Assembly: GCA_017440585.1 (NCBI GenBank)
Contig: JAFSGW010000030.1
Span: forward strand, 1 to 47,266
Length of the DNA: 47,266 bases
Source: Clostridia bacterium
GTDB taxonomy: Bacteria > Bacillota > Clostridia > UMGS1883
Direction of reading: 5' to 3'
Each line of letters starts with the position of its first letter. Within the stretch, counting starts at the first letter, position 1. The translations under genes were made by a program, and so were the position numbers. Of the stretch, positions 2,195-9,300 are shown in pieces. Under the pieces are notes generated by a model. That model saw nothing but the letters and a program-made list of their open reading frames with translations. It ran no database searches and was not told where the DNA came from.

Positions 2195-2229
2195 AAAAAG
2201 CGTGTCGACTTTTTCGACACGCTCTTTTT
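2195..2229 (-). terminator. GCGTGTCG-type terminator hairpin, copy 1
   Basis: A nine-pair stem GCGTGTCGA/TCGACACGC (2200-2208 with 2214-2222) with a CTTTT loop is flanked by AAAAA and T-rich tails. It follows the stop codon of the MATE gene on the minus strand and separates it from the phage cassette. The same stem recurs at 5276-5300 and 11519-11540. Confidence 0.8.
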
Positions 2230-3559
2230 ACATATAATTATATTTTTTTCGCATCGCTACAAAGAACACCACCGCCGCCACAGCACTGAATATTTCCGTC
2301 ATGGGGCTTGAAATCCATATTCCGTCAAGACCCCACACCATGGGAAGCAATAACACAAACAGCACCTGGAACACAACCGTTCTTAAAACGCTCAGCACAG
2401 CCGAAATAACGCCGTTATTAAGTGCCGTGAAGAAGCTTGAAGCAAATATATTAACACCGCACGCTAAAAACGCTCCTGAGAACAGCTTAAAGCCTCTTAC
2501 CGTCATATTGTAAAGTTCCATGTCATAGCCGACAAAAACCTTTGACAAGGCTCCTGAAAGCAAAAATGAGGCAATTGTCATCACAACACCGCTGGCTACC
2601 ATAACAATAAGGCTCTTTCTGAACACACCCTTAAGCTCATTTTCGTTCCCTGCACCGTAGTTATAGCTTATAATAGGTGCACTTCCTATGGCATAGCCAA
2701 TAAATATCGACACAAAAATGAACTGCAGATACATAATAACGCCAAATGCCGCAACGCCGTCATTGCCTGCAACCTCAATAAGCTTGAAGTTGTAAAGCAT
2801 GCTCACTAAACTCATGGAAACGTTACCTAAAAGCTCACTCATACCATTTGAGCATGTTTTAATAAGCACTTTAGGATAAACCCTTGTTCTTGTAAGCTTA
2901 AGTGCACTTTTATTGGGAAATGCAAAATACAAAAAGGGCACAATACCGCCCACACACTGGCTTATTGCCGTAGCCCATGCCGCACCCGTGAGCCCGAAAG
3001 GTAAAACGCCTACAAGTAAATAGTCCAGCACAATATTTGTAACCCCTGCCGCCACAGTCACAAATAGACCAAGCTGAGGCTTTTCCGCACTTACAAAAAA
3101 GCTCTGAAAAATGTTCTGCAGCATAAATGCAGGCAATGCAAAAAGTATAATCCTGCCGTATATCACACAGTAGTCAACCATTATGCCCTCTGCACCTAAA
3201 AGCTGTGCCATTGGCTTTAAAAGTGCGATGCCCGCTATTGCAATGATTGTACCAAATAAAATTGTTGCATAAACAAGGAACGAAAAATATTCCTTCGCTT
3301 TTTTACTGTCGCCCTCACCTAAAGTTTTTGCCACAATGGCAGTACCGCCCGTGCCTATCATAAAGCCCACGGCACCTAAAACCATTATAAAAGGGTAAAT
3401 TAAATTTACTGCCGTGAAAGCTTCCTTACCCGCAAAGTTTGACACAAAAAGCCCGTCCACAACACCATATATGGAGGTAAAAACCATCATCACAATGCTG
3501 GGGAAAACAAATTTAAAAAGTCTTCTCAGGGTAAAATGATCCGATAACTTAATAGCCAT
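2228..3559 (-). CDS. MATE family multidrug/cation exporter, 443 aa
   Basis: This integral membrane protein has about twelve hydrophobic segments. Two homologous halves are visible, each beginning with a P-x-I/V-M/V element (FPSIVMMVFTSIYGVVDGLF near residue 17; the second half starts near residue 230). VSNFAGKEAFTAVNLIYPF is typical of the MATE (NorM/MepA/DinF) superfamily, which exports organic cations or drugs in exchange for Na+ or H+. The length is normal. The ATG (3559) sits behind GGAGAAATTT and overlaps the 3' end of the NAD(P)HX repair gene by 11 bases, so the two are co-translated. The substrate cannot be read from the sequence. Confidence 0.9.
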   Translation of the reverse strand: MAIKLSDHFTLRRLFKFVFPSIVMMVFTSIYGVVDGLFVSNFAGKEAFTAVNLIYPFIMVLGAVGFMIGTGGTAIVAKTLGEGDSKKAKEYFSFLVYATILFGTIIAIAGIALLKPMAQLLGAEGIMVDYCVIYGRIILFALPAFMLQNIFQSFFVSAEKPQLGLFVTVAAGVTNIVLDYLLVGVLPFGLTGAAWATAISQCVGGIVPFLYFAFPNKSALKLTRTRVYPKVLIKTCSNGMSELLGNVSMSLVSMLYNFKLIEVAGNDGVAAFGVIMYLQFIFVSIFIGYAIGSAPIISYNYGAGNENELKGVFRKSLIVMVASGVVMTIASFLLSGALSKVFVGYDMELYNMTVRGFKLFSGAFLACGVNIFASSFFTALNNGVISAVLSVLRTVVFQVLFVLLLPMVWGLDGIWISSPMTEIFSAVAAVVFFVAMRKKYNYM

Positions 3560-5003
3560 AAATTTCTCCTGTTACTTTTCCTATGTTTCTTACAGTATCG
3601 CTTGCTGTCATGCTGAGGGCGTTGACCTCCCTCTGTGCTTCCTCACCTGCACGGGCAGCAATGTATGCCCCCAAACTTACGCTCTTAATATCAAATTCCA
3701 TATATCCGCCAATACCGCAAAGTATGCCGGAAAGTACATCGCCGCTTCCTGCCGTTGCCATACCGGGGCAACCACGGTTTATAAAATAAACCTCATCCCC
3801 GTCAGTAACAGCGGTTGCAGTGCCCTTTAAAAGCACCACTACTCCGTACTCCTTTGCAAATTCTTTTGCCTTTATAAAGTCAACTTCCTTCATATCAATC
3901 TTTGCAAGGCGTGAAAACTCTTTCACATGAGGGGTAAGACAAACATTGCATTTTGTTCTCTTTAAAATATCCAAATCCATATTGGAAAGAGTGTTGAGTC
4001 CGTCTGCATCTATAACCACATTAATGGCATAGCTTTCAAGAATATATTTAAGTACTTCTTCGTATTCTTTCCCCTTGCCCCAGCCCATGCCTATGGCAAG
4101 GCATTTTATGCCACCTAAAGCCTCGTCTGTTTTTTCTTTATCAAAGCCCCCGGGCATTTTAAAAAGGGTGCTTTCAAGTAAATAGGGTGCCACAAAGGGT
4201 GCAATATTTTCTTTCACAATAAGCCTCGTAACTCCACACCCACTCTTCAGTGCTGATAAGCTCAAATTACCAAGCTTCACCGCCCCTGCATACTCCTCAC
4301 AGCCACCCCATATGGCAGTATAACCGTAGGTGCCCTTGTGTGAGAAGCTCTTCCTTTCGGGGAGCATGCCGTAAAAATCCTCTTTGTCCAAAAGATAGTA
4401 TTTTTCGCCCACAATATCAATGCCTATAGGGCAGTTTATAAGCTTTTTTATTTTATCCTTCGCTTCATTCAGTATAAGCCCCGTTTTTATCGTGCCGATG
4501 GAAACTGTCATGTCACTTATAACGCTGTAGCCCGTTCCCGTGTCACCGTTTAACCCCGAGGGTATATCCACGCTTATAACATATTTTCCGCTTCCGTTTA
4601 TCTTGTCAATAATATCTTTAACAATCCCCGTCACTTCGCCACGAAAGCCCGTGCCGAAAATGCAGTCAACAATTGTGTCAAAGCCCTCAAAGCTTATGTT
4701 TTCATCTATAAAAGAGTACTTCACGCCCTTTTTTATGCACTCGTCAAAGTAAAACCTTCCATCTGAAGAAAATTTATCCCACAGCAAAAAAAGGTGACAT
4801 TCTTCACCTAAAAGAGACGCCAATACATACCCGTCTCCTGCATTGTTGCCTCCTCCGCAGATAATGGCGGTCTTCCCTTTCCAATTGTAGGCATTATACA
4901 CCGCCTCTCCTGCCCTTTTCATAAGAGTGAGGGAGTCTGTTTTATTTTTAATTGTAGCCTCGTCGCTTTCACGCATCACTTTAACACTTACAACTTCCTG
5001 CAT
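3549..5003 (-). CDS. nnr: Bifunctional NAD(P)H-hydrate epimerase / ADP-dependent dehydratase
   Basis: The enzyme repairs damaged NADH and NADPH. The N-terminal YjeF domain epimerises R/S-NAD(P)HX (nucleotide-binding ICGGGNNAGDGYVLASLL near residue 49). The C-terminal ribokinase-like domain dehydrates S-NAD(P)HX at the expense of ADP (GCPGMATAGSGDVLSGILCG near residue 415, the family G-SGD active-site loop). At 484 residues it is a normal-length fusion. ATG 5003 is preferred because AGGTG lies six bases upstream. The longer GTG start at 5012 would lie inside that ribosome site. The gene overlaps the MATE gene downstream. A terminator at 5044-5070 isolates it from the hairpin block upstream. 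Confidence 0.92.
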   Translation of the reverse strand: MQEVVSVKVMRESDEATIKNKTDSLTLMKRAGEAVYNAYNWKGKTAIICGGGNNAGDGYVLASLLGEECHLFLLWDKFSSDGRFYFDECIKKGVKYSFIDENISFEGFDTIVDCIFGTGFRGEVTGIVKDIIDKINGSGKYVISVDIPSGLNGDTGTGYSVISDMTVSIGTIKTGLILNEAKDKIKKLINCPIGIDIVGEKYYLLDKEDFYGMLPERKSFSHKGTYGYTAIWGGCEEYAGAVKLGNLSLSALKSGCGVTRLIVKENIAPFVAPYLLESTLFKMPGGFDKEKTDEALGGIKCLAIGMGWGKGKEYEEVLKYILESYAINVVIDADGLNTLSNMDLDILKRTKCNVCLTPHVKEFSRLAKIDMKEVDFIKAKEFAKEYGVVVLLKGTATAVTDGDEVYFINRGCPGMATAGSGDVLSGILCGIGGYMEFDIKSVSLGAYIAARAGEEAQREVNALSMTASDTVRNIGKVTGEIYGY

Positions 5004-5039
5004 ATAAATCACCTATCGCCATTGTAACACTATCCCCAC

Positions 5040-5070
5040 AAAAAAACAAGAGCCCGAAGGCTCCTTGTTT
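5040..5070 (-). terminator. UUCG-loop terminator upstream of nnr
   Basis: On the minus strand the stem AAACAAG...AGCC closes on a C(UUCG)G tetraloop (5044-5054 with 5059-5070, one bulged base) and is followed by seven T residues. It lies upstream of nnr, so it must end transcripts arriving from the hairpin block or from the 5334-6404 gene. A near copy is at 5301-5330. Confidence 0.8.
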
Positions 5071-5091
5071 CAGACTATCGATAAACCTAAA

Positions 5092-5222
5092 CTTTCGCAC
5101 TAATGCGAAGGGTTCGGGGAAGAAGGTTCCCCGAATAAAATCGGAGGGGCAATCGCATTGCTCCTCCGAAAGTGCCGATTTTAGGGGGCTCGCAAGCCCC
5201 TTGCACGATAAATCGGCACTTT
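5092..5222. repeat. Cluster of four contiguous inverted repeats
   Basis: No gene fits in 5004-5333. This part holds four back-to-back hairpins: 5093-5098/5105-5110; 5113-5121/5127-5135 (nine pairs); 5141-5152/5158-5169 (twelve pairs, one wobble); and 5169-5181/5210-5222 (thirteen perfect pairs) enclosing a smaller hairpin 5184-5190/5195-5201. Another, 5241-5255/5261-5275, follows. Together with the terminators on both sides, nearly every base pairs. It could be a structured RNA, a small mobile or REP-like element, or stacked terminator debris. Confidence 0.7.
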
Positions 5223-5275
5223 TTTCCTCAAAATAACATTAACAAAAAATATTGCTCTCTGCAAGATTTTTTGTT

Positions 5276-5330
5276 GCGTGTCGACTTTTTTTCGACACGC
5301 TTAAACAAAAGCCCGAAGGCTCCTGTTTAA
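5276..5330 (-). terminator. Tandem terminators after the 5334-6404 gene
   Basis: Two hairpins abut. The first, 5301-5330, directly follows the stop codon and has a UUCG tetraloop like the one at 5044-5070. The second, 5276-5284/5292-5300, is a second copy of the GCGTGTCGA stem seen at 2200-2222, with a longer T loop. Confidence 0.75.
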
Positions 5331-5333
5331 ATC

Positions 5334-6404
5334 TTATTCTACTATAAGCCACTTGCCGTCTGTCACCTTTAATCTGACATCAAGCTTCTCTTCCTCAGCC
5401 TTGGGAAGCATCTTAATGCTTGTTTCAATAGCACCGCTTAAGTATTCAATCATCTTGATTGTAACTTCAATTGTCAATTCAGCCTCAGCCTCTTCAGTAA
5501 GATATTCCAGCTCTTCAAGAGAAATACCCTGCTCTTCCATTACTTTAAGCATAAGAACCATCATAAGCTGTTCATTTACCAGAGATGTTGTATCAAGGGC
5601 TTCAAAATCAGGTGAAGACAAATTAACGTGTATTATAACCTCTGTTTCGCTTACAGCCTCTGTAGCATCAACTGTGAGCACCATGCTCTTAAGGAAAGTA
5701 TCTACAACCTTGGCTGTTGCAGCTTCCAGTTTTTCTCTCTGTGCAGGTGTGAATGCACTGAAATCAAGCTCTTCTCCCCAGAGAGATTCGCCCATAACCG
5801 CCTCAATATCTGTCAGTCCTTCAATTTCTACACCCTCTGCACAGTATGACCTTACCTTTTCAAATTCGCCTGCAGTAAGTGCAGCCCACATGTCGAGCAC
5901 AACCTGCTCTGCAGCGGCATAATCAAGGGGCTTTTCTTCCTTAACCGTTGTAATAATAACAGTTCTTGTTTCGCCCTGCCATTCAACCTTACAGCCGAAA
6001 GCTTCCGCAACGGCACGAACGGGTACCATTGTTCTGGAGTTCATTATGCATGCAGGCACGTCAAGGGTTTTCACTTCACCGTTTACCGTCATTTCCTTTG
6101 AATCAACAGCAAGGGAAACCGTAACGTTGCCCTTAACGCTTGTAACGCTTCTTGATTCACCGTTCCACTCAACAGTAGCACCCAAAGCTTCAAAAACGCT
6201 TCTTAAGGGCACAAGTGTTCTGCCCTCAACAATAACGGGCATCTGACCGTATGCCATGCAGTCAACTGCTACTGTGTCAACCGTAATTGTGATAGCATCC
6301 TTCGCATCCATCTGTGCCATAGGCATGCCCTCTGCCAGTGTGGGCACAACACAAACAGAAAGCATAATGCACATTGCCAGTACAATACTTAAAATTCTTC
6401 TCAT
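5334..6404 (-). CDS. Secreted copper-amine-oxidase N-terminal domain protein, 356 aa
   Basis: A signal peptide is visible at residues 1-24 (RR, then a hydrophobic core, then an ALA-type TLAEG cut). Residues 35-150 carry the two-part copper-amine-oxidase N-terminal (stalk) domain with its hallmarks GRTLVPLRSVFEALGATVEW and SRTMVPVRAVAEAFGCKVEW. In Clostridia this is a non-catalytic extracellular module. The remainder (160-356) is an acidic helical region ending in a beta-rich segment (VRLKVTDGKWLIVE) resembling DUF3887 or NTF2-like tails. No catalytic residues are evident. It probably acts on or outside the membrane. A promoter and a 13-bp inverted repeat surround its ribosome site, and two terminators follow it, so it is a monocistronic, possibly regulated, unit. 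Confidence 0.8.
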   Translation of the reverse strand: MRRILSIVLAMCIMLSVCVVPTLAEGMPMAQMDAKDAITITVDTVAVDCMAYGQMPVIVEGRTLVPLRSVFEALGATVEWNGESRSVTSVKGNVTVSLAVDSKEMTVNGEVKTLDVPACIMNSRTMVPVRAVAEAFGCKVEWQGETRTVIITTVKEEKPLDYAAAEQVVLDMWAALTAGEFEKVRSYCAEGVEIEGLTDIEAVMGESLWGEELDFSAFTPAQREKLEAATAKVVDTFLKSMVLTVDATEAVSETEVIIHVNLSSPDFEALDTTSLVNEQLMMVLMLKVMEEQGISLEELEYLTEEAEAELTIEVTIKMIEYLSGAIETSIKMLPKAEEEKLDVRLKVTDGKWLIVE

Positions 6405-7827: not shown

Positions 7828-9300
7828 CTACAATATTATGCAGATTAAGCCTCCACTGCCCTCATTTATAATTTTCTGCAGGGTTTCCTGAAGCTTGAAC
7901 CTTGCCTCCTCAGGCATTTTATACAATTTTGTCTGTAACCCCTCGTTAACTAAGCTGTAAAGGCTCTTTCCGAAAATGTTACTTTCCCATATTTTGCCCG
8001 GGTCGCTTTCAAACTCGCTCAAAAGATATTTTATAAGCTCCTCGCTCTGCTTTTCGCTTCCCACAATGGGGCTTACCTCGGTCTGTATGTTTGCCTTTAT
8101 AATGTGCAAGCTTGGTGCACTTGCCTTTAATTTCACCCCGTAGCGACCGCCCTGCTTTATTATCTTGGGCTCCTCTAAGCTCATTTCTCCAACCTCAGGA
8201 GGCACAATGCCGTAGCCCGTATTATTTGCCGCCTCCAAGGCATACTTTATTCTTTCATACTCCTTCTTAACCTTTGACAAATCATACATAAGCTCAATCA
8301 ATTTGTCCTCGCCTGCAACCTCAAAGCCCGTCATTTCGCCTAAAATTTTGTAAAACAGTGTTCTCGCAACATCTGCCTTTATAAAAATTTTACCGTCACC
8401 AAGGCTTATTTTATCGCATTGCACGCTTTCTATGTACTCGTTCTTTCTCAGTGCCTCCACAATGTCTGCCGCGTTTTTAACAATTTTTGCGTCCTTTACG
8501 CTCTCCCGCACGCTTTCAAAAAGGCTTTCCTTTAAATAATGGGTGCTCTCCAAAGCATCAATCCAGTCGGGAAAGTCAATGTCAATCTCTGTTATGGGGA
8601 ACTCAAAAAGCACCGCCTTTAAAATTTCCTTAATGTCATCCTCTTCCATATCTGCACAGGATACTGCCACCACGGGAGCGGAATATTTTTCCTCAAGCTC
8701 ACCCTTAAGGTGTAAGGCATCCTTCCCGTCAGGGTAACGGCTGTTTAAAAGAATAACAAAGGGCTTTCCAATTTCCTTTAATTCTCTTACAACCCTTTCC
8801 TCCGCCTCAACATATTCATACCGTTCAATATCCGTTACAGAGCCGTCGGTTGTTACCACAACGCCAATGGTGCTGTGCTCCTTTATAACCTTCTGTGTAC
8901 CAATCTCCGCCGCCTTGTTAAAGGGTATATCTTCCTCAAACCATGGGGTTGAAACCATCCTTGCTTCCCCGTCCTCGGTATGACCCAAGGCAGAATTAAC
9001 AACATACCCCACACAGTCAATAAGCCTCACGTTAAAGGTTGCATTATCCTCCACCTTTACCTCAACAGCCTCATTGGGCACAAACTTTGGTTCTGTTGTC
9101 ATAATTGTCCTTCCGCCTGCACTCTGGGGAAGCTCATCAACGGCACGGTCTCTCTTGTAGCCCTCATCAATGTTCGGAAGGATGCTTTTATCCATAAACC
9201 GCTTTATAAAAGTGGACTTGCCCGTTCTTACGGGACCTACAACACCAATGTAAATATCTCCGCCGCCACGTGCGGCAATGTCTGTATATATATTTCCCAT
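7828..9300 (-). CDS. spoIVA: Stage IV sporulation protein A (spore-coat ATPase)
   Basis: SpoIVA polymerises on the forespore surface using ATP and forms the basement layer of the spore coat. The N-terminal P-loop domain has Walker A GPVRTGKST (22-30) and a Walker B-like IDCVGYV with Asp95. The long central and C-terminal regions end in the hydrophobic GGLICIIL tail typical of SpoIVA, which is needed for SpoVM-dependent anchoring. At 490 residues the length is normal. The ATG at 9300 has CGGGAGG seven bases upstream. A sigma-E-type promoter precedes it, matching mother-cell expression, and a terminator follows, so it is monocistronic. Its membrane anchor SpoVM is at 11444-11515. Confidence 0.97.
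   Translation of the reverse strand: MGNIYTDIAARGGGDIYIGVVGPVRTGKSTFIKRFMDKSILPNIDEGYKRDRAVDELPQSAGGRTIMTTEPKFVPNEAVEVKVEDNATFNVRLIDCVGYVVNSALGHTEDGEARMVSTPWFEEDIPFNKAAEIGTQKVIKEHSTIGVVVTTDGSVTDIERYEYVEAEERVVRELKEIGKPFVILLNSRYPDGKDALHLKGELEEKYSAPVVAVSCADMEEDDIKEILKAVLFEFPITEIDIDFPDWIDALESTHYLKESLFESVRESVKDAKIVKNAADIVEALRKNEYIESVQCDKISLGDGKIFIKADVARTLFYKILGEMTGFEVAGEDKLIELMYDLSKVKKEYERIKYALEAANNTGYGIVPPEVGEMSLEEPKIIKQGGRYGVKLKASAPSLHIIKANIQTEVSPIVGSEKQSEELIKYLLSEFESDPGKIWESNIFGKSLYSLVNEGLQTKLYKMPEEARFKLQETLQKIINEGSGGLICIIL

What the first reader, a model, noticed from the sequence alone, without database searches (positions are those of the whole stretch)
5040..5330. Gene-free block composed almost entirely of eight consecutive hairpins
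In order: 5044-5070 (UUCG loop), 5093-5110, 5113-5135, 5141-5169, 5169-5222 (13 perfect pairs with a nested 7-pair hairpin), 5241-5275 (14 pairs, one mismatch), 5276-5300 and 5301-5330 (UUCG loop). The end hairpins are near copies of each other (AGCC-CGAA-GGCT cores), so the block is bracketed by a repeated terminator. Two or three terminators would be ordinary; the four between them have no terminator tails on the minus strand. This could be a highly structured small RNA ending at 5044, or a composite of palindromic mobile repeats.
Basis: seen in the sequence. Interest (0 to 1): 0.68.

Follow-up and report, generated by a model that had tools for sequence, protein, structure and literature searches.

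The report
Mobile hairpin element inside duplicated terminators
The hairpin block is one of at least two dozen copies of a small jumping DNA element that lands in the stop signals at gene ends and copies the whole stop signal to both sides of itself, and its own fold is kept by matched mutations as if it worked as RNA.

Summary
The hairpins are real (z = -11.9). Window 5071-5302 is one copy of a 232-bp non-autonomous transposon, not a single-locus RNA gene. The host genome gives 30 matching stretches (about 25 places), three sister species hold more, and none turned up elsewhere. The 'repeated terminators' bracketing it (5044-5070, 5303-5328) are its target-site duplication. A sister species has the same gene junction with one terminator and no element. 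Of 35 copies with readable flanks, 27 sit between two copies of their own local terminator hairpin, 22-34 bp. The mobilising family is inferred: an intact IS1182-family element in a sister species has the same ends (CAGACTGTCGA) and a 29-bp duplicated terminator. Known IS1182 relatives (IS1272) target hairpins but delete them; here they are duplicated whole. Insertion strips the U-tract from the gene-proximal terminator in both directions and leaves it on the distal one, so read-through should place the element in the 3' UTR (inferred). Internal stems covary strongly, with G-U tolerated and A-C avoided on the plus strand, suggesting selection as plus-strand RNA. Its function and expression are untested.

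The parts
5044..5070 (.). left copy of the target-site duplication: terminator hairpin AAACAAGAGCCCGAAGGCTCCTTGTTT; its outer (left) side keeps the original T7 tract read on the minus strand
   Evidence: (95% direct repeat; 93% alignment with the right copy; single terminator at the orthologous empty site of G002; minus-strand distal tail TTTTTTTGTG)
5071..5302 (+). the 232-bp mobile element (MITE) of the IS1182 group; plus strand is the strand favoured by G-U/A-C asymmetry
   Evidence: boundaries shared by copies; same ends and target as an intact IS1182 element
5071..5085 (.). left terminal inverted repeat CAGACTATCGATAAA (IS end in G001: CAGACTGTCGAAGAA)
5288..5302 (.). right terminal inverted repeat, inside the last hairpin (reverse complement reads (C/G)AGCGTGTCGAAAAA in other copies; IS end CAGACTGTCGAAAAA)
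5092..5111 (+). stem H1, weakly supported (75.9% of cells paired)
5113..5135 (+). stem H2, loop GAAGG; 6 of 9 pairs with changes on both sides
5141..5169 (+). stem H3, 13 pairs, conserved AAUCGCAUU apex; 5 of 13 pairs with changes on both sides
5170..5221 (+). stems H4 (12 pairs, 99.5% of cells paired) and H5 (8 pairs, 98.5%) with the conserved CUUGCACGA internal loop
5241..5275 (+). stem H6; whole stem sequence is replaced in other subfamilies while pairing is kept
5276..5300 (+). stem H7, right-end hairpin GCGTGTCGA...TCGACACGC
5303..5328 (.). right copy of the target-site duplication: AAACAAAAGCCCGAAGGCTCCTGTTT, directly after gene 5334-6404 (-)

Best explanation
The block is a miniature, non-autonomous transposon (MITE) that uses the ends of an IS1182-family insertion sequence. 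Shown: it is multicopy; it has short terminal inverted repeats that match an intact IS1182 element of a sister species; both the element and that insertion sequence lie between two copies of a whole rho-independent terminator hairpin; an orthologous site without the element has one terminator. Inferred: the IS1182 transposase recognises the palindrome (perhaps extruded as a cruciform) and joins the element at the two opposite feet of the stem, so that gap filling copies the entire hairpin to both sides. Shown from the sequence: the copy next to the gene loses most of its T-tract and the far copy keeps it, on either side. Inferred: transcription therefore reads through the weakened near terminator into the element and stops at the far one, so the element becomes part of the gene's 3' UTR with little harm. 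Inferred, less certain: the plus-strand fold (H2-H5) is itself selected as RNA (for example to protect, process or terminate that 3' UTR, or to interact with a protein).
For: 30 matches in the own genome to the window block; shared boundaries and locus-specific duplicated hairpins; 27 of 35 readable copies exceed the 99% level of mismatched-flank controls. Intact IS1182 (NF033551 415 bits, PF13751, PF05598) with ends CAGACTGTCGAA and a 29-bp exact terminator duplication. The same behaviour in IS1182 elements of two other clostridial families: L124 with a 30-bp hairpin duplication, L128 with a 32-bp hairpin on both sides. Empty site in G002. U-tract loss on the near copy in both directions (p about 4e-5 and 7e-6). 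Copies lie at gene ends: 18 convergent, 20 tandem, 2 divergent pairs. Covariation: 208 doubly changed cells against 71 in shuffles and 14-53 in slid controls. WC>GU 33 against WC>AC 9 parsimony events in H3-H5, p 3e-4.
Against: No IS1182 transposase was found in the host genome itself; the draft is 93% complete, so an active source may be missing or gone. The MITE shares only its ends with the insertion sequence, not its interior. Eight of 35 copies show no duplication above the control, some truncated. No transposition, transcript or cruciform has been observed; read-through and any RNA function are inferred. Terminator stems are known to evolve by compensatory change (PMC5381666), so stem covariation need not mean an RNA function beyond termination.
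Confidence: 0.9

Rival explanations
1. It is the same terminator-targeting MITE, but the internal hairpins have no RNA function: they persist because palindromes are corrected by template switching, because recombination among copies spreads them, or because any terminator-like hairpin is harmless there.
For: MITEs commonly form stable folds (PMC10969869); mosaic copies exist (L108 joins an L109-like left part to an L064-like right part); H2 and H6 show little or no G-U preference in the cell counts; apex inversions in flanking hairpins suggest that palindromes here change by strand-switching events.
Against: Loop and linker motifs (GCGAA, AAGAAGG, AATCGCATT, CTTGCACGA, ACTTTGTTC) are largely conserved while stems change. 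Palindrome correction is strand-symmetric, but H3-H5 tolerate G-U and avoid A-C on the plus strand.
Confidence: 0.3
2. A stand-alone small RNA gene of this locus.
For: Strong fold and conserved structure.
Against: Many copies at unrelated loci, each flanked by its own duplicated terminator; absent from the orthologous junction of G002; no Rfam match at gathering level and only sub-threshold noise.
Confidence: 0.03
3. A composite of several independent palindromic repeats that landed side by side.
For: Some copies carry extra modules in their loops (103-nt and about 115-nt inserts), and right-end-like hairpins also occur alone as terminators (window 2200-2224).
Against: The core hairpins occur together, in fixed order, with fixed ends, in 34 aligned copies.
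Confidence: 0.03
4. The hairpins were duplicated by something other than an IS1182 transposase, for instance an RNA-primed or integrase-based insertion at transcript ends.
For: Duplications are unusually long; a second repeat family in these genomes has about 40-60-nt direct repeats at tRNA 3' ends.
Against: The intact IS1182 element of a sister species has the same terminal sequence, the same target and the same exact hairpin duplication.
Confidence: 0.04

Closest known systems
IS1272 / TnSha1 (IS1182 family, staphylococci; PMC4923244, PMC5678879)
   Same: IS1182-family transposase; target is a hairpin, often a rho-independent terminator, with no sequence consensus; both orientations
   Different: IS1272 deletes or replaces the hairpin and leaves no duplication; here the whole hairpin is duplicated (the 'pathway b' that PMC5678879 drew only as a theoretical option), and most copies are 232-bp MITEs
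IS1182-family insertion sequences of Clostridia (L123, L124, L128 here)
   Same: terminal CAGACTGTCGA or CAGTCTGTCGA and whole-hairpin duplication
   Different: these carry the transposase; the MITE shares only the ends
Pneumococcal BOX, RUP and SPRITE repeats (PMC3049150)
   Same: small interspersed non-coding repeats with strong RNA folds, enriched at 3' ends of convergent genes, modular and nested in one another
   Different: BOX and RUP make TSDs, not reported there as whole-terminator duplications; SPRITE is a single terminator-like stem with AAAA/TTTT ends and no established TSD; no sequence comparison with them was made here
Intrinsic terminators evolving by compensatory change (Bacillus cereus, PMC5381666)
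   Same: stems keep pairing through double switches with G-U as the commonest intermediate
   Different: there single terminators at fixed loci; here a 232-bp mobile fold with several stems and conserved loops

Membership tests
MITE (non-autonomous transposon) | short, no transposase gene, many copies | tested here: met
   232 bp, no ORF of 60 aa or more within the block, 30 matches in own genome
MITE (non-autonomous transposon) | terminal inverted repeats | tested here: met
   CAG(AC)TGTCGA(T)AAA against CAG(CG)TGTCGA(A)AAA, imperfect
MITE (non-autonomous transposon) | target-site duplication and an empty site | tested here: met
   27 of 35 copies; G002 junction without element
IS1182 family (as its MITE) | ends match an intact family member with transposase | tested here: met
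   L123 ends and NF033551/PF13751 transposase
IS1182 family (as its MITE) | a source transposase in the same genome (usual, not strictly defining) | tested here: not met
   none in G000, a 93%-complete draft; present in sister species G001
IS1182 family (as its MITE) | mobilised by the IS1182 transposase | not testable with these tools
   needs a transposition assay
IS1272-type hairpin-replacing transposition | target hairpin removed, no duplication | tested here: not met
   hairpin present on both sides
known structured RNA family (Rfam 15) | match at gathering score | tested here: not met
   only a tRNA in the window; sub-threshold noise in the element
functional structured RNA | covariation above controls, with a strand preference | tested here: met
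functional structured RNA | transcript and phenotype | not testable with these tools
   no RNA data held

The most novel reading that the evidence does not exclude
A transposon family that duplicates whole terminators and thereby places itself as a transcribed 3'-UTR cassette, carrying a previously undescribed structured RNA (H2-H5) whose plus-strand fold is selected and works at the RNA level for the element or its host.
Probability: 0.35. Interest if true: 0.75.

Novelty: new variant of a known kind. Interest (0 to 1): 0.58.

Why it matters
Hairpin-targeting by IS1182 elements was known from IS1272, where the hairpin is destroyed. Here sequence evidence from four related genomes, and from IS1182 elements of two further clostridial families, shows the other outcome, duplication of the whole hairpin. 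That explains how such elements can accumulate at gene ends without removing terminators and gives a natural record of target-strand joining at the feet of a palindrome. If the plus-strand RNA fold is functional, these elements would be self-installing 3'-UTR cassettes and a source of new structured RNAs.

Tried and rejected
Rfam at gathering and permissive thresholds gave nothing. PF13751 in the own genome gave nothing; NF033551 in relatives gave the source element. A genome-contig scan with the neighbouring NnrD protein returned no locus. A core covariance model over 391 clostridial genomes found only the own genus, though only about nine candidates per genome were scored. Weak DNA matches in G016, G034 and G046 are short stretches, judged chance without further analysis. 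A kissing interaction between GCGA of H1 and the H3 loop UCGC was considered; changes are mostly wobble-compatible but too few to claim. An internal promoter was looked for by eye and not found. Taxonomy and record look-ups gave no finer name than Clostridia bacterium.

Full report
OBSERVATION. The plus strand of 5030-5340 folds at -131.1 kcal/mol against -71.9 for shuffles (z -11.9), the minus strand at z -7.6. There is no ORF in the gap between 3549-5012(-), an NAD(P)H-hydrate epimerase/dehydratase, and 5334-6404(-), a copper-amine-oxidase-N-domain protein. The end hairpins are a 22-nt direct repeat at 95%.

IT IS A DISPERSED REPEAT. A search of the host genome with the block returned 30 matching stretches, ten of them (the window's own included) covering 228 bp or more at 89% identity or more. 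Some copies are split by inserts, so the number of places is lower, about 25. Sister species G001, G002 and G003 carry more. Of 84,980 bacterial and archaeal species scanned with a core motif, only three metagenome-assembled Clostridia from ruminant hindgut matched; the contig lengths fit G001 = RGIG7308, G002 = RGIG4683 and G003 = RGIG4545. A covariance model of the core found only the own genus among 391 clostridial genomes. No match was found in viral contigs.

THE BRACKETING TERMINATORS ARE A TARGET-SITE DUPLICATION. In the alignment of copies with their flanks, the similarity stops at 5071 and 5302; outside, each copy has a different hairpin, but in most the same one on both sides. A local alignment of left with right flanks exceeded the 99% level of 1,297 mismatched flank pairs in 27 of 35 copies. 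The repeated stretch is mostly 22-34 bp and is usually the complete stem-loop, abutting the element. In the window the copies are 5044-5070 and 5303-5328. In sister species G002 the same two genes are separated by one terminator (AAACAAGAGGCGCAAGCCTCTTGTTTTTTTGTG) and no element: an empty site. Copies sit at gene 3' ends: among those with both neighbours called, 18 convergent, 20 tandem and 2 divergent.

THE MOBILISING FAMILY. G001 holds an intact IS1182-family insertion sequence (NF033551, 415 bits; PF13751 and PF05598). Its ends are CAGACTGTCGAAGAA... and ...TTTTTCGACAGTCTG, and it lies between two exact 29-bp copies of the terminator AAACGCCCGACGCATTGCGTCGGGCGTTT. The block begins CAGACTATCGATAAA, and the right ends of the family read (C/G)AGCGTGTCGAAAAA in inverse; MITE L064 of G001 begins CAGACTGTCGAAAAAGTC, the same 18 letters as one IS end. 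IS1182 elements of two other clostridial families behave alike: L124 has a 30-bp hairpin duplication and L128 a 32-bp hairpin on both sides. No transposase was found in the host genome, a 93%-complete draft; mobilisation by IS1182 is therefore an inference from ends and target.

HOW IT PROBABLY WORKS. Shown: hairpin target, whole-hairpin duplication, both orientations. Inferred: joining at opposite feet of the stem, then gap filling. A model with this outcome was drawn as an option in PMC5678879, whose own data showed the opposite, hairpin replacement; PMC4923244 likewise reports hairpin targeting with deletion and no duplication. Shown: after the GC stem the near copy has on average 4.6 (plus) or 4.5 (minus) T in ten bases, the far copy 7.0 or 7.4. 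Inferred: transcription from a flanking gene passes the weakened near terminator, runs through the element and stops at the far one, so the element becomes 3' UTR.

THE FOLD IS KEPT BY MATCHED CHANGES. In 34 copies from four species, 92.3% of cells pair (shuffled 83.9%); 208 cells carry changes on both sides (shuffled 71; slid controls 14-53); 32 of 73 pairs have such changes. The shuffles do not remove shared ancestry, and the structure was taken from one of the sequences. Several loops and linkers are nearly invariant. On a tree, H3-H5 show 33 changes from Watson-Crick to G-U against 9 to A-C on the plus strand (p 3e-4; H2-H7 46 against 20, p 0.002); over columns, 21 against 7 (p 0.013). Strand-symmetric DNA processes would not do this; plus-strand RNA, or plus-strand single-stranded DNA, would. 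Terminator stems are known to evolve with G-U intermediates (PMC5381666), so a role in termination would suffice. In tandem contexts the element lies antisense to the gene reading into it in 15 of 20 cases, so how the plus strand would be transcribed there is unclear.

A SIDE OBSERVATION. Differences between the two flanking hairpins concentrate at the apex (26 of 157 positions against 6 of 565 elsewhere). In six of the seven listed pairs with two or more differences the second copy is closer to the inverted than to the direct first copy; L044 and L128 are exact inversions. L013, L024 and L026 were not in that comparison. Loop inversion in a palindrome at or after insertion would explain these; relaxed selection on loops may explain others.

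VERDICT. A new MITE of the IS1182 group that duplicates whole terminators; its target choice is like that of IS1272, but the hairpin has the opposite fate. The RNA-level function is the open and most interesting part.

Noticed in passing
window 2200-2224: The terminator after the MATE gene (2228-3559, minus) is AAAAAGCGTGTCGACTTTTTCGACACGCTCTTTTT, the same hairpin as the element's right end, standing alone; similar lone hairpins are in L115 (G001) and L119 (G003). Either the element captured a terminator or left one behind.
   Followed up: partly
L072, L074, L075 (also inside element copies L025 and L032): A second small repeat family sits at tRNA 3' ends or terminators between long direct repeats (about 40-60 nt, judged by eye) and is also found nearly identical inside the H3 loop of two diverged element copies.
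   Followed up: partly
L020, L021, L023, L026: A 103-nt insert, 98-100% identical, occurs at the same internal loop (CACGA^) of four element copies, one of them much diverged otherwise; in the own genome it occurs nowhere else.
   Followed up: partly
L044, L128, L021, L010, L019: Flanking hairpin copies whose loops look inverted relative to each other (exact in L044 and L128, closer to inverted than direct in the others).
   Followed up: partly
L197 (G001), between the copper-amine-oxidase-N gene and nnrD: The orthologous terminator of G001 carries a different, longer insertion inside its loop (AACAAGAGCTTCGG|...|CCGAAGCTCTTGTTTTTTTG): the same terminator was hit by another element.
   Followed up: no
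L108: Mosaic element copy: left part like L109, right part like L064, so copies appear to recombine.
   Followed up: no
window 7828-9300: spoIVA gene (stage IV sporulation protein A), so the host probably belongs to a sporulating lineage.
   Followed up: no
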